Of a stretch of DNA of 64,000 bases, positions 3,501-55,667 are shown one piece after another (within the stretch, counting starts at the first letter, position 1; every line of letters begins with the position of its first letter). The DNA comes from Glandiceps talaboti (Eukaryota; Hemichordata; Enteropneusta; Spengelidae): contig NC_135555.1 in the NCBI RefSeq assembly GCF_964340395.1, positions 8,027,431 through 8,091,430 on the forward strand, written 5' to 3'. The notes beneath the pieces were generated by a model. That model was not told the DNA's origin. It saw only the letters and a list, made by a program, of their open reading frames with translations, and did not search any database. The position numbers and the translations under genes were made by a program.

Positions 3501-4050
3501 TGTAATTTGATTATGTACGTGGGTGAAGGATGTATGACGTAACGAGTACTTTGTCGTGTTGTGCGAGACTGGACCACCATCTTTGTCATGCACGATATAA
3601 ACGAATTACTAACGTGTAAAGGGAGTGTTTGGATCATACGTGATACTTACCAATAACTAAATGACATTTATCTGATCAGGATGAAGCGAATGGAGAACGA
3701 CGTGTCAAATGAGAGGACAATCGAGTAGCGTATGCACTGGCTGCCGGCTGCTCACTCGCGATCGGCGAGCAGGTTGTCACGCATTTGGTGAGAGTCTAGA
3801 AAAGGAGAAAATGAGGTTACACGTTGTATTCTTTCGACGAACTTGGGGAGTCTATCATTAATAAAAAGGCAATAAAAATGCATGGAATTTTATCAAAGTA
3901 TTAATTCTGACTAAAAATCAGGTCAATTGAGATTTTCACTATATATTATGGAATTATTGTCAAGAATCCAAGAAATCGCACCTTACATGCAAATTGGCGA
4001 TACAAATAATCAATAACTTACGTGTGCTAGATCACCTTCGAAAGTTTAGA

Positions 4051-5687
4051 ATGGCGGCGCGCAAACGGAGAGCCGCAAATGTGAACCAAACTTTGGCAAC
4101 TAGTGACATTGCCAAGAAGGTCAAAGTTTCCACATATAGTTTTATAGACTGGCGTGTTACTGATGTGTGTGATTTCTTGGTGTTGAGAGGGTTCAAAGAT
4201 GTAGCTCCTGTTTTCCGTCGTAAGTACAAGTACACCCAGCGACTCTAGCTCTTGGCCCCTGGTGTTTGCAGTTCTTTGTTTTGTCACAAATCATAACCTC
4301 GATAAAACCAGACACACCGTCACTTACATCAGCTTATTTCAGATTCCGACACATTTAATACATGCCATGGCTGCTATATCATAGAAATCACTGGTCTCCC
4401 GGGTCGTGAACAGAGTGGATACCGTTCACTACGTACATGTACTGAACATGGCCCAACGCGCTAACGCCCAACAATTATGTGTTCCTACCTCCATGGCCCA
4501 AGTTCATTCCGTGATAACTTACATGTTCAAGTTCAGACAGACCTAGACCATAACAATAGGCTGATTCCGACTATAGCTGCATTTGACCATCTGTCTCAAT
4601 CAATAATCTACAAACAATTTCAGGATTTTAGCATTTGGTTTCAACTTTTATTCCAATATTCTGGCAGTGTCTGGTTGAAAATTTGGTTTGTTGTTGGTCT
4701 TGATAAGATATGCAGTGTATATTATCAGTGTAGGTACCCACTATTTCACATATCTTCAAAGAAGTACAACCCCCCCCCCCCTGTCTAATCTGTTTTGAGG
4801 CATATGAACACTGAAGCTAACAAACTTGGTGCAATTGGACTGAGTGATTGCTGGATTGATTGAGTACCGAGGGTAATCCTTCTTATACAGAGTAACTTTT
4901 CATCGCCACGTACACATCACCACAGATCTTCAACAGACAGACAACACTTTAAAAAAAAATATGAATTGAAATTACAAAATAAAATTTATAACTTTTACAT
5001 AAAAGATGGATAAGTAAGTTGAGTTGATAGCTAGTAGTCTGGACGCTATCCAGGACCAGTTTTCTCCAATCTCTCTCCCTATAAGCCCATATAGCTTCTT
5101 GACTAAAAAAACCCAGTAGCTGACATCTCAACAAAAAAGCATCATCGAACTTTCAACATGCTATGTGTCAGTAATTTCCATGTCCTGTTATTACTTCTCA
5201 GGTCAAGAAATAGTGGGATCAGTCCTTCCTGAATTAACAGAAGAAAGACTTGAAAAAATGGGAGTTGAGTGAGTAATACTAAGACTATAACTTTGAATGT
5301 CACTTTACATAGTGTAATAGTGATCTGATGATGACAAATGATGACAGATCATGTATACTTTACCATCAGACAGTAAGTAGACAGACGGTATAAAATACTT
5401 TTCATCTTGTTTATTGGTCCTTGTCAGGCTGTTTAGCTACTGTACTGTATGTAGTGGAAAGAGTACTGTGAGATTGACAAGTGAGTTGATACATTCACAA
5501 GGTACATGTATATATACTGGTAGTAACTCGTAAATAAAGGCAATTTGTATGAACCAATTGAAAGTGGACCTTATGTTTTTCGTCCTTATTTCAAAAGGAA
5601 AATGGGTACAAGACTCCAGTTGCTTCAGTTATTCCAAGAGATATTTCAACATAATTCAAACCTAAAGGTAAGTTTTACAATGCTCTC

Positions 5688-5748
<61 letters not shown>

Positions 5749-8700
5749 GCGTGCGTGCATGTGTGCATGTGTGCGCACACTTTGTGTACATGTGTCTGTG
5801 TGTAAATTCTCATTCTGTAGTTGTATAATGTAGATCAAGCATTCATTGGCATTGGTAATTTGTGTATATTTATATTGCTAATTGCACAATTTCTGACTAA
5901 CTAATTCAGCCCAGTAATTAACCCTCTTGTAAAAACCTGCAAACCAACCTTCATCTATAAACCAACCCGTTACCATCCTTCTGTTTGCCAACCCAGATAT
6001 TCCACAACCATTCTCCTTACATGTACTATCCAAACATACACCATAGACCCTCCACCTTTTTTTTTGGTGGAGGGTCTATGCATACCATCTTCATCAACAT
6101 ATAGTCTTATTTCCATACACTGGATTAGTGCCCCCCACCCTTACACACACACACAATCCTCAACCCCACTCACATCCCACACATACTTCCCTACATTATT
6201 GTCATGCTGACCTCATATATGTACAGAATGCAACAGTAAAACCATACCTCTTGACTTCAGTACATTTGAATCAAGTGGCAAGATGACTTTCACAAGAATA
6301 AATATGACATCACATCTTGTGTATTTGTATTTACAGGTGTTCAATGACCCAATTCATGGTCACATTGAGTTCCATCCACTCTGTGTCAAGATTATAGACA
6401 CGCCACAATTCCAGAGACTCAGGGACATCAAACAGCTTGGCGCTTGTTACTTTGTCTTTCCTGGTGCTTCACACAACAGATTTGAACATTCCTTAGGGTA
6501 AGAATGACAATCATTTGAAATAATAATGGTGGTTTTATATAGCACTTTCCCACTTTGTAATCAAATCGCTTTACAATTATTACCCCAGGCATGGATCAAT
6601 GGCAGTACAACAACCCTTTATCTTTCCTCAACTCCCTTGGGAACATACAATCCATTGCAGCCTTTATAAGCACATAGGATTAAACATTCACAGTGCAACC
6701 TCTATCCTACCAGGTCCCCAAATATACAGCGAGTTCACTGAAATATTCTCTCAGTGATTTAAAAAACTAAAGTTATTGCCTATGAAGTGAGGTTATTCCA
6801 TTGAAGTAATATCAGTTGTAGTTTGGAATATAACTTTCTTATTGTGAAGAGGGGTTTTGGACATTACTAGCGGTTAGGGCATAGCGACACGATATACCCT
6901 ACAGTCTAACTCTAATGCAGCCAGTCAGACTGGCATATTTATTGACCTTAGTAAGAGACATTGGGTAATCTAGTCAGATTTAGCAGCTTTCTATGTGCTA
7001 TTCTCTAACTTTGGTTAGTATCCTTACAAAAAGCTGAGTATTAAACTCAGGTAAAGTCTTCCTACTTTTAAGTATATCAACCATAAGAAAATACTGAAAC
7101 AATTCTACTGTGTTTTGCAGTAATTTCTTTTGGCCTTCAGCTGTAGTCAATCCATTGTTTTGTCTTTTCCAGTGTCTGTTACTTGGCAGGGCAGTTGGCC
7201 AGAAGACTACAAGACAGGCAGCCTGAACTGCAAATAACAGAAGTAGATATACTATGTGTACAAATAGCTGGTCTATGTCATGATCTTGGTAAGTGACAAG
7301 TACAAATAACAGAAGTAGATAGAAATCTTTGTCTGTTATGATGGTTAGGATGACCCACCTACCTGCCATGGCTATGATGATAACCCACCCACCTACCTGC
7401 CATGGCTATGATGATGACCCACCTACCTACCATTTATCATATCACAACCTAATATTCTTTATTAATTACACATTTTAATTTTGTATCTACATGGTTCAAC
7501 ATGTGAGAATACATGCTAATAATTTTCACTCGCTTTGCTTTTTACAGGTCATGGTCCATTTTCACATATGTTTGATCATTGGTTTATTCCTTTTGTTCGA
7601 CCAGACATCCAGTGGAGGGTAGGCATTATCTACAATTACTTCTTATTGACGATCTTCTTAAATTAGATGTAATGTTGAACCCTTTACACTGATGATTCAT
7701 CCTCATTCTCCCAACTTGTACTTAGCTGTGTGCACACAATTACCCCCTAGGGAGAAAGAGGAATTAAAAATGGTTGAAGGTGCTGGCCTGTATTCTGTAC
7801 ATTGCTAGTTCAATCCTTACTGCTGATTGGCTCAAGTCTGTGGCAAGATTTGGCCTATCACTGTAGCTTCTTATGCCAGCTGTATAAATAGGAACTGGTA
7901 GGATATCAATTCGTATGTGAAGGATTTAAAAGTCTTTGTCAAGATTTGAACCACTGTTTTGCCTTACTCAAGTCAGCTGAATACTATTAAATGGGAACCT
8001 GGTAGAACAGGATTCTTAAGTGAAGGATTTAATCCTGTGAGTTTACATTGGCAACATGGCTTTATGCTCCCCAGTGAGTTTTAATAGGAAGGACCAATAC
8101 ATGTATCATTATGGGTTTGAGCTGGGGAAAATAACTGCAGAAGTTTTGAGCACTATTTCAATAACGAAAATACACTGTATAAAAATATGCATCATTATGA
8201 TCATCATTTATCTTTACAGCATGAGAAGGCTTCAGTAGATATGTTTGATTACATGATACAAGACAATAATCTATTTCCCATCTTTGAAGAGTACAGCATG
8301 TCAAAACAAGATATCACATTTATTAAAGAGCAGATCGCTGGACCTCTAGACAGAAGAGATAACAAGGTGATTAGTAGACTATAAGATACGTCGTGACGTT
8401 TCGCCCTCACCGGCCTCCTCTCACAGGTGTTAGGGGTTGGCCGATGTTTGAGGGCACCCCGTCACGGCGTATCTTTCAGACTAGGTGATTAGAAGATCTT
8501 TGAGTTTCATTCACCATTAGTGTTGTAGAGTAATATGTAATATGTATTTATCTTAGTTCAGTGCTCATAGTCGAATCGTATAGATGACTTTTATTTTGTA
8601 TCATCCACACACTGGGAACAAAGAAGAAGTGATATTGTAAACAACTCCAATATTGTTATTCTTTAAAATCATCAGAGCTAAATCTTGATGAAGTATAGCT

Positions 8701-11700
8701 TACCTGTAGTTTTGAAGGACTAACCCTACCTACACTACTCCAACTATTCTAACTGCCCATTTTGATTTTCTAATTTTTGCTCGTCCTCCAACGAAAATTT
8801 AAAAAAAAAAAATTGCCAGTTAGGATAGCTGAACTAGTGTAGTCCTTCAAGGCTACAATTAGGCTAGATGACTTACCAATGCTTGTATAAAATGAAAAAC
8901 GTATAAAACTGAGAAAGACTTCTTGCATTATTGCTTAGCAGAAATAATTTTACAGCAGTATAACTGTGAAAATAAATTGGAGAAATATCACTTTACCAAT
9001 GACAGGTTTTCCATTCTGTAATTGATTTATCTGTTTTAGCATAAACACATAATGGGAGGGAGATTGCTCATGGCTTATATTAGTAAAGAGGAGACATTGA
9101 TTGGTTGAGTGTAAAGATACTTGACCAAATACTCTAAGTATGGATTTGATTGGTACAGAAAAAGTCATGACTTTTTATCCTTCAAAAAAGTCTAAATATG
9201 TTTTGTCTTGTCTTCATTTTGTACAGGATGAGTGGCCATACCATGGAAGGCAAAGAGAGAAAGGTTTCTTGTATGAAATAGTGGCTAATAAACGTAACGG
9301 TATTGATGTAGATAAGTGGGATTACTTTGCTAGGGATTGTCATAACCTAGGAATCCCTAATAACTTTGATCATCACAGATTTCAACAATTTGCTAAGGTT
9401 ATCAAAGTAGATGGTGAATTACAGATCTGCTGTAGAGAAAAGGTAATGTCAAACACATTATTTGCCACATTGGTCCCTGATTGTATTCATTTTGTATATG
9501 TGTATCATATCTTTCTTTGAAAGTGTAGTGTTTATCGGGTGATTCATTCATTCATTCATTCATTCATTCATTCATTCATTCATTCTTTCATTCATTCATT
9601 CATTCATTCATTCTTTCATAAAGTACACCATTGGTGCTAGATTTATGTATGTCTGCTGTTTTTATCCAAAAAGTGCAGATAGTCGTACTTAATTTACAGT
9701 GTACATTACAACAAACGACAGTAGAATATTAGGAAGATATTCAAGAGAATCCAATTATTACTTTTCCTAATCCAACACACTAATATACCTATTATGAAGT
9801 ATTGCATTTGTAGCTCAGTTTGTTTATTATTATATTGCTCGAATTGCAATGTGGAACCAACCAAATAGACCACTGAAATATGTAAATAATATGTTTTCAA
9901 GAGTCATATGAACATTTCACTAGAAATTTACCCCCCCCCCAAAAAAAAAAAAATCAAAAAAAAAATCAAAAAAAAAAAATCATATAAAGGTGAAAAGTCC
10001 CCTACTTTATTCCAATCTATTTCTCTGATCATGTGAATAATTAAAATTCTCTACACATTCAGTTCATTGGATCTGTAAACAATGTGTTCTCATTATAGAC
10101 ACACACACTGACTTATAGACTTATTTATATTTGTATGTGTACAGTACATAAGGCTGTTCAATAATTAGATGTGTTCCCCCTATATTTTTGTAAGGAAAAT
10201 AGGAGTAACCTAAGGGGCCTTGTCACTAAGAGTTGCTGGACAAGTAGTGTCAAATCCTTATGTCTCAAGTATTTTCCAGCTGAATAAAAAAAAATATTGG
10301 GGAACAATGTAATTATACATTGTACCTCCTCAAGCATAATTTATGCAAAAGTGAGAAAAAAAAAAGTCAAATGGAATGTTTTAACATATTTCGAGCACCA
10401 GTCCACTGAACCAGTGATGTAGACACTGGTTGTTATGACATAGAACAACTAGGATATATAATCCATATTTTCTGTTCAAAGACAATAACTTGGCTTGTGC
10501 ATTGTATAATGTATGATACTGTATGGTTTCAGGTTCATAATATATTGTCTATTTCACTTATACCACCAGGAAGTCAGTAACTTGTATGACATGTTTCATA
10601 CAAGAAATACACTACATAGAAGAGCTTACCAGCACAAAGTTGTCAAGATTATAGAGTCAATGTAAGGAGCATGAACAATTGTTTGATATGGGTTGTTCTG
10701 GTTATTATCTTTTTGGTTTCTTTCTTGAAGCTCACTAGCTGCTTGTGCACGTCTGTTTCCTGAAGTAACCGGGCAGAGATTAACTTTTCCACATCTTTCT
10801 GTACTTCCTGAGTTTGTTTGTGCCTTTTGAAACAATGATGTAAAATCAGAATAGGTGTGATAGTAACTTTCTAAACATGTCTATTTCAGGGTAGTAGAGG
10901 CCTTAGTCAAAGCAGATGATCATATCAAGCTTACTGGCAAAGATGGGTAAGTGAATTACTTTCAAATAATCAGCTAAAATATTGTTTTGGAAAAATGGTA
11001 CATTTAAGTTTTTTTAGAGGACACCAGTGAGGCTTAGTTGCATTTTGTATTCTTAGTAAATAAAGAAATGTCATTGTAACCAACTCTGCATTGCTTAGCC
11101 TCTCTTAAATAGAGCTATGAAACTATCATATCTGGATCAGCAGAGGCCTGCTGTACAGTTGGGTGAGGCATCATGGGAAGTAGACACAGTTAGGGGCTTC
11201 ACACCTTGAACCCTTGTCCAAAGCAATGATGAGGCATTGTTATTTCATGTATGTGCAAAATACAGTTAGCATGTCATGTTCACTCTGCTAAAAGTTGCTG
11301 ATAGTTTGTAAAACCAAGTAGTTTCTATTCTATTTGTCGAAAAAGAGTGCAACATTTCTATTTTTATCTTTTCACAGGAAAGAGTGCAAGATTTCAGAGA
11401 GTATCGATGACATGGTAGCATACTGTAAATTAACAGACTACATAATACAACAGATTAAACATAGTACAGATCCAGAGTTAGAAGAGTCACGTAGTATACT
11501 GCATAAAATTCACAGCAGACGGTTGTATAAATGTATTGGACAAACTAGACCACCAAGTGGAGAAGTTGTAGAACAGGTTTGGAATCTTAAATCAGTTTGC
11601 TAGGGGTTTTTATTTTGTGATGGTGTACACTTGTACTTGGGAGGGTCTTTACCATAACACCAAAGTAAAGCATTTTCTGTATCTACCACAATTGTTTATG

Positions 11701-19888: not shown

Positions 19889-20374
19889 AAGTGTTGAGTG
19901 GTTCCTGAGTGCCCTTGATATCTTGATAGGGAGAACAAAGAAATTACAAGAAGGTGTTCTCCCTCTTTTAGCTTCAGAAAGATCACTATTGTTCACTATA
20001 TATCACACAAGAGACTGCCAAAAAAATTACATGACTGGCCATAAATTGATGTATCAAAATAATATTGAGTTGCATAAATCTAATTACCAATATTGCAATA
20101 TTGATAGCTTATAACAATTGGTGTACAATACAGCCTTTGTACTAGCTGCTAGCTATGTCAGTTCCTACAGCCATGGTTCAATGATAGTTTACGTCTAGAA
20201 TCCATGCTGCCCTGTACAGAAAGTTTAGAATCATGTGTGCAGTGGATTTCAGATTTGGATAGCATGGATTCCTTGCTACATAAAATACAATGTTAATATT
20301 TACAGGAAGTCACACAAATCATAACTATTCAAGTTTGGTCCACATGATGGCTGATTGCAAAAGTACTCATATCA

Positions 20375-21335
20375 ATGATCTAACTCCCCAGCGCAATGTC
20401 AATGATCCAACTCCCTAGCACTGATATCAATGATCCGACTCCCTAGCACAATGTCAATGATCCAACTCCCTAGCACAATGTCAATGTTCTGACTTCCTAG
20501 CTCTGATATCAATGATCCGACTCCCTAGCACTGATATCAATGATCCGACTCCCTAGCACAATGTCAATGTTCTGACTTCCTAGCACTGATATCCATGATC
20601 TGACTACTATCAAACTCAATGATCAACCTGCAACAATACTCATATTAATCATCTGACTTCCTAGCCCTCATATCCATGATCTAGTCTGACTCCTGTACAC
20701 TGGGTCAATTATCTGACTCCCCAGCATTCATGTTAATGATTTGACTCCCTAGCAATCATATCAATGATCTGACTCCCTTTAAACACTCATGTCTATGATC
20801 TGACTCCCTAGCACTGTCTATGATCTAACTCCCTAGCACTGTCTATGATCTGACTCCCTAGCACTCATGTCAATGATCTGACTCCATAGCACTGTCACTG
20901 ATATGACTCCCTAGGACCCATGTCACTGATATGACTCCCTAGCACTCATGTCGATGATCTGACTCTCAAGTAATAGTATCAATGATCTGACTCCCTAGCA
21001 CTGTCTATTATCTGACTCCCTAACACTCATGGCAATGATCTGACTCCATAGCACTGTCAATGATGTGACTCCCTAGGACCCATGTCAATGACCTGACTCC
21101 CTAGGACCCATGTCAATGATGTGACTATCTGACACCAAACCAATGATCTGACTCCCTAGCTACCATTCATGTCAATGATCTGACTCCCTAGGACCCATGT
21201 CAATGATGTGACTATCTGACACCAAATCAATGATCTGACTCCCTAGCTAGCACATGTGTCAATGACCTGACTCCCTAGGACCCATGTCAATGATGTGACT
21301 ATCTGACACCAAATCAATGATCTGATTCCAACCCA
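20375..21335. repeat. Minisatellite, 27-28 bp unit, about 30 copies
   Basis: Degenerate units of the type TCAATGATCTGACTCCCTAG followed by CACTCATG run for almost 1 kb, with a few compound or shortened units toward the right end. No reading frame stays open across it. Confidence 0.95.
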
Positions 21336-22124
21336 TAACATCATTCTATCATGCATATGACAATTCCTCCTCAACCTCAGTTTGGTAAGTAGGAAATACC
21401 ATGAGGAACAATGCAGTGCCATGAAGGCAGGACATGTTCCACACTAACATTGCACTGAACATTTTACTCATTTAATATTGCCAATATAAAAAGAAGAGTT
21501 TGAAGATTACTTTGTAAGACTGTGATTCTAACACTCTTGCAGAGAAAAACAAAATAATGGAATTACGAAAAGTATTCAAGCAATATAGGCTGGGAAATGA
21601 CAAAGTCTTGATGAATTCATTAAAAAGTGAATATACATGTGACAACATCACTTCAAATTAGCATGCAAATATAACTGACATTTCAACATTGGAATACCAC
21701 TTGATGCCATGGCAACTGACCTTTGACCTATTAAAACTACTTCTGAATCTGCAAATAAATGCGTGAAACAGGAATTCAATGTAAAATCATGGTATTAAAA
21801 TGAAATTCTGATAAATTTCTTATTTTCTAACAAACTATAATAGTTTTATTTGTTGTGTTTCATTTTACTCAGAATAGTTGTATACATACATAAGTAGCAA
21901 TTCAATATATGGAGAACGTCTTCAATGGAAGCCACACTCCTAAGACGGAATCACTATTACAATGGATGTGATAACTGATCAAGAATTACTTTCTGATTTG
22001 GCTAACATTAGGCTAGAAATGTACTAGCTCAGTACTTGCCCAAGGCTGGCACTACTAGTACTACACCTCACCGGTATGTGTTGGTAGCAACTGGGGGAGT
22101 TCAAAAATGGCTGCACTAGTCAAA

Positions 22125-25261: not shown

Positions 25262-28200
25262 TCAATTTGAAAGTAAGTTTTCTCTAAAAGCAGTGAATTT
25301 GCTAAGGTCGGTAAGACTTCTTTCCATGGCAGTTTCATCATTGCTATCGTCATTACTGGGACTGTTGTCGTCATTGGATGGAAGTAAGGGTAAACTGGCC
25401 TGATTCAGACTCTCCTGTCTGAGTTGCTGTTTGCTATGTACTCTGAGATGCTCTTTCAGGTTACTGGATTGTGAAAAGGCTTTACAACATATACTGCACT
25501 GATAGGGTCGCTCACCACTGTGGATACGTACATGGGCCCTCAACGTACTAGCTTGGGTGAATGCCTTACCACAGTGTTGACACTGGTAAGGCCGTTCTCC
25601 GCTGTGTGTACGCATGTGACTTTTCAGATGTTGAATCTGTACAAAAGATTTTGCACATATGTGACAACTGAATGGTTTCTCTCCAGTGTGAATTCTTTCA
25701 TGAGCCCTAAGGTTTCCTGATTGTGTAAAACCCTTCCCACATGTTTCACACTTAAAAGGCTTTTCCTGACTATGAATGCGTTTGTGCGTTTTCAAATTGC
25801 CAAGTAAACTAAAACCTTTACCACAAATCTCACAGTGAAAGCGACGTTCTATCTGATCACCTGCGATACCATTATCCAGCCCACCTTCTGTAAAATTACC
25901 AAAATTGTGAAAAGGAAAGCTTAAACTAGCTAATGATGACAATGTGGAGTTAGCATCTCCAAATGGTGCATATTTGAACTGTTTCATTTGTTGATCTAAT
26001 AATAGGTTATATGGGAGTAGACTTGATGCATCTCCCTGGTGAGCAAGTGGAGTTAGAGATTTAAATGGCATCGCAGTGGACATACCACTAATGCTGTCTA
26101 GCTTGGGAAGACAGCTCAGAAGGTTTTCGTGTTCTCTGTTTAGAGGAGTTGCAGTTGATGATGTAGTAGTTGTTATTGAAGTAGTTGCTGTGGAGACTGA
26201 GTTGTTTGAACTTGTAGTTGCTGCTGTTGGTGTTGTAGTTGTTGTTGTTGCTGTTGCTGATATTGATGTTGTTGTTGGTGTTGTTGTCTCTTCTTTTGTT
26301 TTTCCGTTAGTATCTGTTTTCTTCACCGACAAGTCCTTAGCTTTATTGCCAGGTTCATAATCCGGATCATTCTCTTCATCATCATCATAAAAATCATCAA
26401 CGTTCTCATCTATCAGATCTTCTTCATCGGCACTTGCTGTCTTTTGGGAATCTTCTTCATAAAATTTGTCACCGAATTCATCTGTGTCGCCATTTCCTGT
26501 ATTTTCCGACATATCCATGCTTTTCTGATTTGATATCATGGATAGTTTGTTGTTGTCATTGACAGTCCACATAAACATATTCCACGGCGGTTCAGCACAA
26601 ACATCAGCCATTGTGAGTGGCAGACCAGTTGAACCTGAGATAGCAACATCTTTACCTTCTGCCTTCAGTCCTTCTTCATTGTAATCTCGGATGTACTCAT
26701 ATGTACCGTAGTACTGGGACTCTCTCTGATCTGGGTCAGTCACTTTGATAAACACACCACATCCAGTCAAGTCAGCTAACTCATGGCACTACACAGAAAT
26801 AAAGAGGACAAAAAGGGTAAGCAAATTCAAATAAAATTTCATCTGAGTTTGTAAAGCTTCAGATGTATAGAAGTTAAACCTTTTGTTCTAGTACAGTGTT
26901 AATTTTCTACATGCATGTATTTGGAACAAACCTTTCTTTCTATGCAAAGAGAAAAACGTATTCATAAAGCAACTACACACATATGGGATAATTAGACAAA
27001 ACAAAGACATCAGAGCATTCAATTGTTTGGGGGATTCAAAGTATAACAAGTGAAACAATACCTTCTATATTCACACTTTTTAATCATGTAGGAATCCAAA
27101 ACAAAGTAAGGAATAAATGTATACAATTTTTACAATGAAACAAAAGAGCCTTTAGATGAGATTTTCCAATTATCCTAAAACTCTAGTCTTGTTTCACACT
27201 TGTGATTAAAAAATGTATTGAATTATGACGACATGGATATTTTGTGACTTTCAAATTAAACATTCTCAGACCAATATGACCTTTTAAGTATTTGATTCCC
27301 TTGCTTAATTTCAGTCTGCTCTCAGTAACAAAAGAAATAGGGGAAAAAATTTGAACAAATTGGCCACACAACTTTTCAGCATCAAACAGATGCATATCAC
27401 TATATAAATTAACAGTAAATACAGAAATCCATGATTTACTTTTTATATTACTTTTTCTTGATTTTAATACGGATTTATTCATTAGATAAAATAAATGATG
27501 AAAGTAAAGGTAGTTGGTAAGCTTTGCCAGCTTGAAAGTTCAAACAAAAGTTTGCTAATAATGTACATGTCCAAATATCACTGTTCAGTGTTATCGACAA
27601 TGACGTCAGTAAATTGCCATTGTTACTCCATGCTGACAATTTTCACCGGTGCAAATGTTCTAATAATCAATCTATATTTACTACATTGGTACAAAAATGA
27701 TTACAAGTTTGACTTTCTGCTTTGCTGAAACTATTTTTATGATAATATAGTATCTGTAGTCAACTTGTTGGCAAAGTAAAATTACTGGATAGTGAAATAT
27801 GCTTTCCCAAGAAAAAACACTAGGGCAGTCATAGTACACCAAAAATGATAAACCATGTGCAAAAAAATATTTTAGCGCTACATGAACTTAAAGATATGTT
27901 CCATTGATATACCCCAAAAAATTTGCTAATAACGTAAATAAAGTGAACCACAAAAAAATGCAATAATTTATAAATACATCACAAGCATGAGGTGAGCTTG
28001 GATTCATGAAATATATAAAAGAATTTTCTACATTTTGACTGTACGTCACTTGAAATAACCAAATGATATGTTTATTTGGTTTATTACATTTGTATTTGGT
28101 TTTCAAAATCAAATCACCCAGATTTGATTTGAATGAAGGAAGCCCTACAGACTACTAGAACAAGACTAGAAATGTGGGGGAAAAAACATGTTTACAAGTA

Positions 28201-31959: not shown

Positions 31960-32554
31960 AGTATTACAGTACTATACATGGTTTAGAGACAGGCTAGTAC
32001 AAGTGATATACAATAAATTTTCACATTATTGATCGGAAATTTGATGTTTTCGTGAAATTTTATCAAATGAGATGCAATTTTGTGACTTTTGATAGACCAT
32101 GTAAGGCCTAATAAAAACAAATTATCTGACACCACCTAGTTTTTCACGCCGACCCTGAACATTTTTTTTAAGTATTCGAAAAAAAAATCATAAAATCAAG
32201 AAAATTGTGAAGTCTTGCAAGAAATGGTGGATGCGCAAACTGACACCAAATTAAAAAGGCAACATAAAACTGTTCTTCCCATCTGTAATGAATGTACATC
32301 TGATGAGAAGAAACCAATAACACAGAGACCATATGGAAAACAATGGAAAATGTAACTACCTGAACTAGACACTCACATATGAAAAAAAAATCTACCTACC
32401 CCACCTATTCTAAAAATGAGCGAAGTCGGAACCACACAATTTTTTTGTTAGGCCTAAGTACCCTGTTTTTGAAGGTTGTGAACACTGACCTCTATGTATA
32501 GTTTTACCCTACACAGTCAGTATATATATCAACGGCAGTTATATTACTCTTGAA

Positions 32555-33215
32555 CCTCTAATTAACATGAATATTGCATGCACAACTACCATTAGAACAC
32601 ATATTGGGTCTAATTAACATCAATATTGCATGCACAACTAATATTAGAACATATATTTGGTCTAATTAACATGACTATTGCATGCACAACATATATTAGA
32701 ACACATATTGGGTCTAATTAACATGAATATTGCATGCACAACTTATATTAGAACACATATTGGGTCTAATTAACATGAATATTGCATGCACAACTAATAT
32801 TAGAACATATATTTGATCTAATTAACAGGAATATTGCAAGCACAACTATTAGAACACATATTGGGTCTAACTAACATGAAAATTGCATGCACAACTACCA
32901 TTAGAACACATATTTGGTCTAATTAACATGAATATTGCATGCACAACTACCATTAGAACACATATTTGGTCTAATTAACATGAATATTGCATGCACAACT
33001 AATATTAGAACACATATTGGGTCTAATTAACATGAATATTGCATGCACAACTAATATTATAACATATACTTGATCTAATTAACACGAATATTGCATTGCA
33101 CAGCTAGCATTAGAACACACATTTTGTCTAATTAGCATATATATTGCATGCACAAATAGTAATATTAGAACACATATCTGGTCTAATTAGCATATATATT
33201 GCATACACAACTACT
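32555..33215. repeat. Minisatellite, about 51-bp unit, ~12-13 copies
   Basis: Units of TCTAATTAACATGAATATTG + CATGCACAACTAATATTAGA + ACACATATTGGG repeat with few changes, becoming more diverged at the right end. Each unit carries the self-complementary TGCATGCA-like core (ATTGCATGCACAA) and TTAATTA-like AT palindromes. Confidence 0.95.
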
Positions 33216-51670: not shown

Positions 51671-52049
51671 CTTTTCGACACTTAAACTTCACTAGGACAA
51701 CTTCTAAACGAGTCAGGGACGAAAGCTAGCAATACGTGTATGACTAGTTAGCTTTGCGTCCACTCAACAGTTTCTAGCATGCGCAGTGAAAGCGAAAGAT
51801 TTGCATACTGTTTATCAGTGGGGGTGCCAGCAACCCAATTGATTAAAATCCGATGTGGTGAAAGCGGCTAGATGTCCTTATTTACCTCTATTCATCGTGT
51901 TGTGACGTTTGTTTTGTTCGGAGTGATCGCCGCTTCCCACGTGGGAAGGCGACGATTACTCGGTACGAAAACAAACGACACAACACGATGGAAATAGAGG
52001 TAAAAACCATTTCGACGCTTTCGCCACATCGAGGGTACACATGGTCAGG
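51671..52049 (-). promoter_or_regulatory. 5' flank / putative promoter of the transporter, occupied by transposable elements
   Basis: The start codon at 51670 sits in AAGATGG. Only about 180 bp upstream of it begins the palindromic element 51852-52031, and 380 bp upstream begins the fold-back element. No TATA box is evident. The nearest TGGAAANNYNY match (osmotic-response element consensus) is TGGAAAGCCAC at 52052-52062, inside the fold-back terminal repeat. Confidence 0.4.
51852..52031. mobile_element. Palindromic MITE beside the transporter promoter
   Basis: CGATGTGGTGAAAGCGG at the left end mirrors CGCTTTCGCCACATCG at the right; TTTACCTCTATTCATCGTGT, GTTTGTTTTGTTCGGAGTGA and TTCCCACGTGGGAA pair with their partners down to the central CACGTG. 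The whole 180 bp is one imperfect hairpin. No coding capacity. Confidence 0.85.
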
Positions 52050-52677
52050 TATGGAAAGCCACAACTGACTTAAGTGTGCAATTACTATTATTGTATGTGC
52101 AAATACTATGTTATTATGTGCATTCAATAGTTTATTATGTGCTTACCTTAAATTATTATGTGCATACTGTATTATTCTATGTACAGTTACTATTACTATA
52201 TGTGCAAACACTATGTTATTATGTGCATTAAATAGTTTATTATGTACAGTTACTATTATTGTATGTGCAAACACTATGTTAGTATGTGCATTTAATAGTT
52301 TATTATGTACAGTTACTATTATTGTATGTGCAAACACTATGTTAGTATGTGCATTTAATAGTTTATTATGTACAGTTATTATTATTGTATGTGCAAACAC
52401 TATGTTATTATGTGCATTGAATAGTTTATGTACAGTTAGTGTTATTGTATGTGCAAACACTATGTTATTATGTGCATTAAATAGTTTATTATGTGCAAAT
52501 CTTAAGTTATTATGTGCATACTGTATTATTATATGTACAGTTACTATTATTATATGCGGTAACACTACGTCGTTATGTGCATACAGTAGTTTATTAAGGG
52601 CTTTCGTTAAGATCCCCCGCTAGAGGGCACACTTTCTCGCCGATTCAAACACGCACGCGCAGACTCGAGTTGCTGTT

Positions 52678-52878
52678 GTGTTATCCTTTTGTGAGCACGT
52701 CCCGTCGTCGTCTAGTCTGTCATGGAGTCCCACGTCTGTTCTGTCAGATTTAGGTCTGTCAGCTTTCACAGCACGTTTCTTGACAGAGGGAGTCACTTTC
52801 TCTCATGTGCTCGACATGACTGAGGAAAATTTAATAAGTTTTGGTGTCAGAAGATTGGGTATGACCGACTTGATTTAA
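52678..52878 (+). pseudogene. SAM-domain coding fragment in left arm and centre of fold-back element
   Basis: Open frame with a SAM-domain pattern: Trp, then VLSDLGLSAFTARFLTEG, VTFSHVLDMTEENLISFGV, RRLGMTDLI, stop. The conserved hydrophobic spacing and the Leu-Gly-Leu, (L/I)-(T/D)-x-(T)-E-E-x-L and G-(V/I) positions fit SAM domains; the last helix is cut by TAA at 52876. No ATG is in frame close upstream in a good context (an ATG at 52722 is in another frame). It looks like an exon captured from a host gene; GC content and codon use are unlike the AT-rich surroundings. Confidence 0.7.
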
Positions 52879-53635
52879 GAAGTCGGTGCCGGGAAGCTTT
52901 GGGGCGGGCCGGGCCTGGGAGCTGACAGGGGGTCCAACTCGTGCGGCAACTAGATCGCCTCAGGGCGTGACGTCTAGATCGAGATCTACCGTAACTAAGG
53001 GGAGAACCGTTTGATTTCTGGGGGGGGGGGGTATGGAGGAAGTAGGTATGGGAGCAAATTTTTTTTCCAGTCAGTGACAGCAATTTTTTTTTCTACTGTC
53101 AGTCCTGCATCAATTTTTTTTTCAAATGGAGTAGCAGTGCAATTTTTTTTTAAATTAATCATTAAGTTTGAATGCGTTGTTCATACTTACACCACGTCAC
53201 AATGGTTCACAACTGTACCTCTAAATAACTTGTTCTGTGCAAGTAGAAGAATTAGCAGTTAGTATGAAAGACGTCTGTCTACGTTAAATTACAACTTTAA
53301 ATTATAGAACAGTTCCAAAATCAACTCTGATCAGTACTAAACTTGCTTTTCTTTGAATCAGTCAATTCCTGTAAGTTCTCAGGGAAGATATTATTTTTTG
53401 TATTTCGTTATATTTGTTGTTCCTCAATTTTCATTCTCAACTTGAGAAAGATTTATTTGTACATCTTTATAAGAGATTTATATTGAAAGAAAAACACTAG
53501 ATTTTAACACTAGTCTATTGACTCCTGTCTTGTTTTTTAAATTGTCTTAATTTACAGAAACCAAATAGTCCCCTTCAGATATTGACTGTGTCATTGAGAT
53601 ATTGCAACAAAAATCCTGAAATATGTTTTCTTGGG

Positions 53636-53818
53636 TCAGAAAAGGAAAGGAAAACTTATTAAATTTTCCTCAGTCATGTCGAGCACATGAGAGAAAGTGA
53701 CTCCCTTTGTCAAGAAACGTGCTGTGAAAGCTGACAGACCTAAATCTGACAGAACAGACGTGGGACTCCATGACAGACGACGACGGGACGTGCTCACAAA
53801 AGGATAACACAACAGCAA
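53636..53818 (-). pseudogene. Truncated SAM-domain fragment in right arm of fold-back element
   Basis: Mirror copy of 52678-52842. It stays identical in protein terms except Glu to Lys (FLTEG to FLTKG) and loses homology right after NLISF at the arm boundary (53651), so it lacks the GVRRLGMTDLI end. This shows the arm boundary cuts the domain. Confidence 0.75.
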
Positions 53819-55667
53819 CTCGAGTCTGCGCGTGCGTGTTTGAATCGGCGAGAAAGTGTGCCCTCTAGCGGGGGATCTTAACGAAAGCCCTTAATAAACT
53901 ACTGTATGCACATAACGACGTAGTGTTACCGCATATAATAATAGTAACTGTACATATAATAATACAGTATGCACATAATAACTTAAGATTTGCACATAAT
54001 AACATAGTGTTAGCGCATATAATAATAGTAACTGTACATATAATAATACAGTATGCACATAATAACTTAAGATTTGCACATAATAAAATATTTAATGCAC
54101 ATAATAACATAGTGTTAGCGCATATAATAATAGTAACTGTACATATAATAATACAGTATGCACATAATAAAATATTTAATGCACATAATAACATAACGAC
54201 GTAGTGTTACCGCATATAATAATAGTAACTGTACATATAATAATACAGTATGCACATAATAACTTAAGATTTGCACATAATAACATAGTGTTAGCGCATA
54301 TAATAATAGTAACTGTACATATAATAATACAGTATGCACATAATAACTTAAGATTTGCACATAATAAAATATTTAATGCACATAATAACATAGTGATAGC
54401 GCATATAATAATAGTAACTGTACATAGAATAATACAGTATGCACATAATAACTTAAGATTTGCACATAATAAAATATTTAATGCACATAATAACATAGTG
54501 TTAGCGCATATAATAATAGTAACTGTACATATAATAATACAGTATGCACATAATAAAATATTTAATGCACATAATAACATAGTGTTAGCGCATATAATAA
54601 TAGTAACTGTACATATAATAATACATTATGCACATAATAAACTATTAAATGCACATAATAACATAGTGTTAGCGCATATAATAATAGTAACTGTACATAT
54701 AATAATACAGTATGCACATAATAACTTAATATTTGCACATAATAAAATATTTAATGCACATAATAACATAGTGTTAGCGCATATAATAATAGTAACTGTA
54801 CATAGAATAATACAGTATGCACATAATAACTTAAGATTTGCACATAATAAAATATTTAATGCACATAATAACATAGTGTTAGCGCATATAATAATAGTAA
54901 CTGTACATAGAATAATACAGTATGCACATAATAACTTAAGATTTGCACATAATAAAATATTTAATGCACATAATAACATAGTATTTGCTCATACAATAAT
55001 AGTAATTGCACACTTAAGTCAGCTGTGGCTTTCCATAGTCAGGGGTAATTTATTCTGGCGATCGCCTTACGCGGGTTTCTCGGGAGTCAAATGATTCCTG
55101 AATGAGCTAGTTTGTCACTTATTTCAAAGTTCATCGATGTAATTTACAACCAGCTATTACATTTTAGAGGAGAATAAATCTAGTTGACAAAGAATAAAAA
55201 TCTGGAAAATACATACACCATATGGTAATTTATGGTCCTCGAGATATATCAATTATCAGTGTCACTATTTTAATTTTCATCTGAAAGTATTTCCCCAAAC
55301 CAATAAAAATCTGTAGTCACGTGACATTATCATAGATATAAAAAGCTTATGCACGAATGAAACATATGGGTTGCAAGTGTCAGATACATGATATTGTATA
55401 CATATTTTTAATCCGATATACATGTACATAACTAGACGATATACTAAACCTCCGGGTACGCAGTTATATCACACTCGTCAAGGTCATGAAATTTGCTAAC
55501 AGTGACATACAAACAAAGTTTGGCACATGCTTTTTTTAATAATTTTCTTGAAATGCTACCAATGCAATACAACTCACGTGACACTAACTGTTTACAACAA
55601 CAAGTCAACAAGTAACACTGAAGTAAAACACTTTCTCTATGTGCTACACTTGTATAGAATTCATATC

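What the first reader, a model, noticed from the sequence alone, without database searches (positions are those of the whole stretch)
52050..55037. Fold-back transposon with 6-bp target duplication and SAM-domain cargo
Clear GTCAGG duplication, ~3 kb, very long arms that would form a cruciform, and a GC-rich captured gene piece in both arms. I do not recognise a described family with this combination. The cargo being symmetrical means the host fragment was captured before, or together with, the arm duplication.
Basis: partly seen in the sequence, partly recalled or inferred. Interest (0 to 1): 0.85.

Follow-up and report, generated by a model that had tools for sequence, protein, structure and literature searches.

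The report
Fold-back derivative of an IS3EU transposon
This is a gutted jumping gene with long mirror-image arms, one of a young family in its host genome that a complete relative probably moves, and its relatives show how the mirror-image form was probably born from a botched DNA repair.

Summary
In detail: 52050-55037 is flanked by GTCAGG, has long inverted arms, and carries a GC-rich SAM-coding piece in both arms. It is a real mobile element. Its tip pattern occurs at 86 places in the host genome; of 34 paired elements, 30 have an exact 6-bp duplication, against 1 of 1122 mismatched pairings. It is best filed as IS3EU: TA..TA ends (TATGG..CCATA), 6-bp duplications, and a 13,986-bp relative with an intact IS3/IS481-type integrase. 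The "SAM cargo" matches exon 1 of that relative's own second gene, a SAM/HECT ubiquitin-ligase gene. Of 60 SAM matches in the genome, 58 lie within 10 kb of a family tip and one of the other two has the family's middle; one 240-bp tipless locus stays unresolved. Three one-sided relatives carry the SAM piece in one arm only. The fold-back form (20 junctions) joins that piece in reverse at a 7-bp microhomology, and its arms are chimeric, as expected from abortive gap repair. Galileo shows the same kind of arm extension, so this is a new variant of a known kind. The most novel point is the HECT gene, which recurs in a second, divergent family here; no paper in the library names both IS3EU and HECT.

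The parts
52044..52049 (.). target site duplication GTCAGG, left
52050..52470 (+). outer left arm: 21-bp tandem array of M type (like the non-SAM end of one-sided relatives); boundary approximate
   Evidence: 14-mer painting; end identities; TRF
52470..52593 (+). inner left arm: 21-bp array of S type (like the SAM-side end of one-sided relatives); boundary approximate
52594..52995 (+). 5' region and exon-1 fragment of the SAM/HECT gene, frame disrupted by a 7-bp insertion; SAM-like frame 52723-52875
52996..53650 (+). truncated copy of an unrelated dispersed repeat (start TAAGGGGAGAACC); 330 first-look candidates in the genome for 53041-53640, 40 scored
53651..53657. AAAACTT, 7-bp microhomology at the fold-back junction (partner AAGTTTT at 52836-52842, read off)
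53651..53894 (-). inverted second copy of the SAM exon-1 and 5' region
53895..55037 (-). right arm: 21-bp tandem array, S type apart from one mixed stretch, ending CCATA
55038..55043 (.). target site duplication GTCAGG, right

Best explanation
A non-autonomous IS3EU DNA transposon in fold-back form. Shown: shared tips and 6-bp duplications across the family; a relative in the same genome with matching ends and an intact integrase frame; a SAM piece homologous to that relative's own gene; one-sided relatives; a 7-bp microhomology junction; chimeric arms. Inferred: (1) an internal deletion of an autonomous element left the two long arrays plus SAM exon 1; (2) an unrelated repeat inserted inside; (3) after excision, gap repair from the M-side flank copied the M array, slipped into the S array, and ran through SAM into the nested repeat, while repair from the S-side flank copied the S array and SAM; (4) the two nascent ends annealed at AAAACTT/AAGTTTT, giving mirror-image arms; (5) the founder spread, mobilised in trans by the autonomous integrase acting on the tips and perhaps the 21-bp repeats. 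The SAM piece is passenger DNA without a usable frame.
For: Tips: 86 places, control 0; 34 pairs and 18 unpaired tips. TSDs: 30 of 34 exact, control 1 of 1122. C12 copy: 13,986 bp, 96% identical TIRs of about 1.18 kb, TSD TAAAGT, integrase rva_4 E 2.9e-79, IS481 E 9.8e-14 and IS3 E 2.4e-9, D206/D263/E298. C18 copy: 16,690 bp, TSD CAAACC, transposase differing at 3 of 460 codons. SAM source: about 80% DNA identity to C12 exon 1; 88 of 88 candidates scored, 60 SAM-part matches, 58 within 10 kb of a family tip. Junction: 20 places, 18 exact, control 0; 7 bp or more of microhomology arises in 0.05% of random joins. One-sided L026-L028. SAM_L arm with M outside and S inside in 11 of 12 fold-backs; the twelfth (L018) is the mirror case. 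A 7-bp insertion is in both arms of 12 of 12 fold-backs and in 0 of 3 one-sided copies. Fold-backs differ by 0.46% on average in the 600-bp middle (12 copies).
Against: Transposition in trans and transposase expression are not shown. C12 exon 1 is only about 80% identical to the fold-back's and no match to the nested repeat was found in C12, so the direct parent is a lost or unread one-sided copy; the three one-sided copies read lack the fold-back's 7-bp insertion. One locus, C15:20083211, carries the SAM exon and its 5' region (93% to one-sided copies) without the array and without a tip within 10 kb: a truncated fragment or a host exon. No phylogeny with reference IS3EU transposases could be run. 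M and S types were defined from the same three one-sided copies. L023 shows a second M stretch inside its SAM_L arm, and S arms hold isolated mixed stretches. Conversion of one end by the other plus a later exchange could give the same product. Four of 34 pairs lack an exact 6-bp duplication.
Confidence: 0.8

Rival explanations
1. The arms were extended by homologous conversion: a break in the M-side end was repaired using the S-side end as template, copying past the TIR into SAM (the TIR1-F1-F1-TIR2 route proposed for Galileo), with a later exchange of tips.
For: The same product is described for Galileo (PMC3573991 passages); the arms are similar arrays that seem to recombine, as L018 shows by its flipped interior.
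Against: It predicts that the tip beside the new SAM copy stays M type; 11 of 12 fold-backs have an S tip there and an M tip on the other side, so a second exchange is needed. None of the 15 copies painted (12 fold-back, 3 one-sided) shows one exchange without the other. It also still needs a microhomology join to the interior.
Confidence: 0.2
2. Host-gene capture (Pack-type): a fragment of a host SAM gene was picked up by the element.
For: The piece is GC-rich against the arms and has SAM character. One tipless locus, C15:20083211, has the SAM exon and 5' region in a 96-aa open frame, 93% identical to one-sided copies.
Against: The C12 element carries this exon in an open 369-aa frame next to its TIR, followed by HECT exons; 58 of 60 SAM matches lie near family tips, and the other one besides C15 (C1:35418145) sits beside the family's middle sequence. 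C15 holds no more than the piece the short copies hold.
Confidence: 0.07
3. A one-off inverted duplication rather than a transposon.
For: None beyond the symmetry itself.
Against: 20 copies of the junction, 86 tips, 30 of 34 exact 6-bp duplications.
Confidence: 0.01
4. A member of another 6-bp-duplication group or a Foldback/MuDR-type element.
For: Long repetitive TIRs resemble Tm1; Polintons also give 6-bp duplications (PMC10045372).
Against: The partner's transposase matches IS3/IS481-type integrases, tips are TATGG..CCATA, and Tm1 has 9-bp duplications (abstract).
Confidence: 0.05

Closest known systems
IS3EU (IS3EU/GingerRoot) DNA transposons
   Same: TA..TA ends, usually 6-bp TSD (PMC10045372); fungal members end TAYGG..CCRTA and carry a further gene opposite the transposase (PMC12730594 passages); IS3/IS481-like DDE integrase.
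   Different: Here the second gene is a SAM/HECT ubiquitin-ligase gene, not the alpha-kinase or TET/JBP genes described in fungi; subterminal 21-22-bp arrays; a fold-back derivative.
Galileo (P superfamily, Drosophila)
   Same: Long internally repetitive TIRs; internal element sequence recruited into the arm as an inverted copy, TIR1-F1-F1-TIR2 (PMC3573991 passages).
   Different: P-type transposase (paper); here an IS3/IS481-type integrase and 6-bp TSD.
Tm1 Mutator/Foldback family (root-knot nematodes)
   Same: Composite TIRs of variable length, MITE-like and transposase-bearing forms (abstract).
   Different: 9-bp TSD and a Phantom/Mutator-like transposase.

Membership tests
IS3EU | 6-bp target site duplication | tested here: met
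   30 of 34 paired elements exact, control 1 of 1122
IS3EU | TA..TA termini, TAYGG..CCRTA in fungal members | tested here: met
   TATGG..CCATA in the window element and both C12 ends; one copy, L019, has a C at the first base
IS3EU | IS3/IS481-like DDE integrase in the autonomous partner | tested here: met
   rva_4 E 2.9e-79; IS481 E 9.8e-14, IS3 E 2.4e-9, both far below those models' own cut-offs; DDE residues located
IS3EU | placement in the IS3EU/GingerRoot clade by phylogeny | not testable with these tools
   no reference IS3EU protein sequences held
IS3EU | mobilised by the IS3EU transposase | not testable with these tools
   needs an assay
Foldback/MuDR-type (Tm1) | 9-bp target site duplication | tested here: not met
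   6 bp; Tm1 value from abstract
Galileo | P-superfamily transposase in the autonomous copy | tested here: not met
   integrase-type transposase
Pack-type element (host-gene capture) | carried fragment derives from a host gene | tested here: inconclusive
   fragment matches exon 1 of the C12 element's gene; 58 of 60 SAM matches lie near family tips, but one tipless locus could not be read far enough

The most novel reading that the evidence does not exclude
A branch of animal-type IS3EU transposons carries a HECT ubiquitin ligase as a standard second gene opposite the transposase, fused to SAM in one family, with the ligase acting in transposition or against host control; fold-back derivatives arise from these elements by abortive gap repair and spread as their parasites. 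Here two divergent families show the pair (transposase 40%, HECT 45% identical between them), and a third locus (C13) has ligase-gene and transposase pieces about 9 kb apart in the C12 orientation.
Probability: 0.55. Interest if true: 0.68.

Novelty: new variant of a known kind. Interest (0 to 1): 0.5.

Why it matters
Fold-back transposons are mostly seen as finished products. Here ancestor-like and derived forms coexist, so the two joins that made the mirror-image arms can be read directly and the repair model can be tested. The apparently autonomous partner is an integrase-type transposon carrying a ubiquitin-ligase gene, which raises the question of what a transposon does with one.

Tried and rejected
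Rejected: a one-off duplication. Rejected: my own idea that the nested repeat is a second IS3EU-like MITE because it shows TATGGAGGA..TCCTCCATA; the 5' ends of four solo copies and the 3' ends of two of them show that its ends run further out (TAAGGGGAGAACC..). Led nowhere: an empty site for the window insertion (one search returned the site's two flanks and a dispersed palindromic repeat); relatives of the transposase in viral contigs (none confirmed); paper searches on SAM and transposase, HECT and transposon, and IS3EU/GingerRoot/HECT with two of four terms (590 papers, uninformative); HECT, transposase and DNA transposons (14 papers listed, one opened by passages, not relevant). The SAM-like N-terminus of the transposase stays weak (SAM_2 E 0.015 on the isolated segment; SHANK3 SAM E 0.34). 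Left out of the 15-copy comparisons: C12, C18, and four fetched stretches with one tip only (L017, L022, L024, L025).

Full report
Observation. The stretch 52050-55037 (2988 bp) is bounded by GTCAGG on both sides, directly outside tips that begin TATGGAAAGCCACA[A/G]CTGAC. The arms are mostly a 21-bp tandem array with higher-order units and pair as inverted repeats. Inside each arm lies a copy of one GC-rich piece, about 97.6% identical between arms. The left copy, which reaches further inward, holds a SAM-like frame at 52723-52875 (SAM_1 E 1.7e-4, just under the cut-off).

It is a transposon family. The window lies in a 590-Mb assembly, taken as animal-like from its genes by memory, not by a call. 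The tip pattern occurs at 86 places with 0 in the control. Pairing facing tips gives 34 elements of 611 to 16,690 bp and 18 unpaired tips. Flanks were read for all 34: 30 have an exact 6-bp duplication, 2 have one mismatch (C17:22162519, C7:6334210), and 2 (L019, L028) have 5-bp matches. Pairing left flanks with right flanks of other elements gives 1 exact match and 9 with one mismatch in 1122. One exact case, L013, lies in a simple repeat.

The apparently autonomous partner. C12:21543644-21557629 (13,986 bp, TSD TAAAGT) has 96% identical TIRs of about 1.18 kb. On one strand it has a gene with a SAM-like domain (SAM_1 E 2e-4, under the cut-off), a weak C2HC match (E 0.014) and HECT-type exons (HECT E 5.3e-11 on exon peptides that I chained by eye; splicing unverified). 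On the other strand it has a 467-aa open frame for an integrase-type transposase (rva_4 E 2.9e-79; IS481 E 9.8e-14 and IS3 E 2.4e-9; D206, D263, E298). A second copy at C18:5472081-5488770 has TSD CAAACC and a transposase differing at 3 of 460 codons. Its ligase exon 1 lacks the SAM part in frame and its exon 4 is broken.

The SAM piece is most likely the element's own. It is about 80% identical in DNA to C12 exon 1. A genome-wide search with the C12 exon-1 protein scored 88 of 88 candidates and gave 65 matches. Of these, 60 cover the SAM part; 58 lie within 10 kb of a family tip. Of the other two, C1:35418145 sits beside the family's middle sequence. C15:20083211 was read over 501 bases: it holds the SAM exon and its 5' region, 93% identical to one-sided copies, but stops where the array should begin, and has no tip within 10 kb. 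It may be a truncated fragment or a host exon; this is the one result that keeps capture open. The five remaining matches cover later parts of the protein (two C18, C13, C11, C7). In fold-back copies the frame is disrupted by a 7-bp insertion, present in both arms of 12 of 12 fold-backs read and in 0 of 3 one-sided copies.

How the fold-back arose. Three copies read in full (L026, L027, L028) have the SAM piece in one arm only. After the shared middle they continue in the nested repeat, where fold-backs continue into inverted SAM. At the switch point the two sequences share AAAACTT; random joins of these sequences give 7 bp or more in 0.05% of 200,000 trials. The junction occurs at 20 places, 18 of them exact, control 0; by comparing by hand, 19 of the 34 paired elements hold it. 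In one search, 20 short reverse SAM copies (residues 3-38) match these 20 junctions one for one. One-sided copies have two end types, S beside SAM and M at the other end. In 11 of 12 fold-backs the SAM_L arm is M outside and S inside and the other arm is S with isolated mixed stretches; L018 is the mirror case, and L023 has a second M stretch in its SAM_L arm. One aborted gap repair, with a slip between arrays and annealing at AAAACTT, explains both joins. The conversion model given for Galileo needs a further tip exchange.

Age. The 600-bp middle differs by 0.46% on average among 12 fold-backs and by 1.8% between them and 3 one-sided copies. Fourteen copies, the window's included, are listed as 100% identical over the first 151 bp. 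No calendar date is claimed.

A second family. C5:9737237-9745110 (7,874 bp) has tips TATGGGGGCCCGTTCTGGTC (89 places, control 0), TSD CTATTC, a 22-bp subterminal array, a transposase 40% identical and, on the opposite strand, a HECT frame of 664 aa, 45% identical. At C13, transposase pieces (two of them 69% and 57% identical) and a ligase-gene piece (51%) lie about 9 kb apart in the C12 orientation. So HECT and IS3EU-type transposase travel together here more than once. Not every HECT match shows this: those at C23, C24, C10 and C1 were not examined for a transposase.

Literature. PMC10045372 (parts 1 to 3 of 5 read): complete IS3EU families have TA..TA ends and usually 6-bp TSDs. PMC12730594 (passages): fungal IS3EU end TAYGG..CCRTA, with transposase and alpha-kinase genes in opposite orientations and a TET/JBP gene between. 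PMC3573991 (passages): Galileo arm extension. PMC3169594 (abstract and outline): Tm1. PMC8268682 (passages) lists IS3EU-annotated satellites in oyster and cites a foldback paper. PMC2837046 (passages) has no word beginning 'transpos'. PMC8195603 (passages) was not relevant. No paper held both IS3EU and HECT; the one holding IS3EU and foldback is PMC8268682. Absence is limited to that library.

Verdict. A non-autonomous IS3EU-type transposon in fold-back form, with a readable birth history. New variant of a known kind. Membership rests on TSD, termini and integrase type; phylogenetic placement and mobility were not tested.

Noticed in passing
L031, G000:C8:13741890-13743299: 490-aa open frame 51% identical to the IS3EU transposase, with all three catalytic acidic residues replaced; rva_4 still matches (E 1.3e-42). 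Possibly an inactive or domesticated transposase.
   Followed up: partly
G000:C5:9734148-9745110: A second IS3EU-type family with its own tips and a HECT frame; its left part appears twice beside a run of N, perhaps an assembly duplication.
   Followed up: partly
L095, G000:C15:20083100-20083600: A tipless copy of the SAM exon and its 5' region in a 96-aa open frame, 93% identical to one-sided elements; fragment or host exon.
   Followed up: partly
window 51832-52031: Palindromic repeat of about 200 bp just left of the element, dispersed in the genome (1332 first-look candidates, 40 scored).
   Followed up: partly
L018, G000:C12:20275692-20278075: A fold-back copy whose interior is inverted relative to its end types, as expected from recombination between the arms.
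   Followed up: partly
G000:C18:5472081-5488770: Near-complete copy whose ligase exon 1 lacks the SAM part in frame and which carries an insert of about 2.4 kb.
   Followed up: partly
G000:C20:4458021-4458631: A 611-bp copy with two G-type tips and TSD CATTAA, the shortest paired element.
   Followed up: no
window about 3931-11600, + strand: Exon-like frames that I take from memory to resemble a SAMHD1-type gene; Pfam gave no support on the two pieces scanned.
   Followed up: partly
window 25265-26788, - strand: 508-aa open frame with a run of C2H2-like zinc-finger motifs, judged by eye.
   Followed up: no
window 20369-21341 and 32481-33199: Tandem arrays with periods of about 28 and 52 bp.
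   Followed up: no
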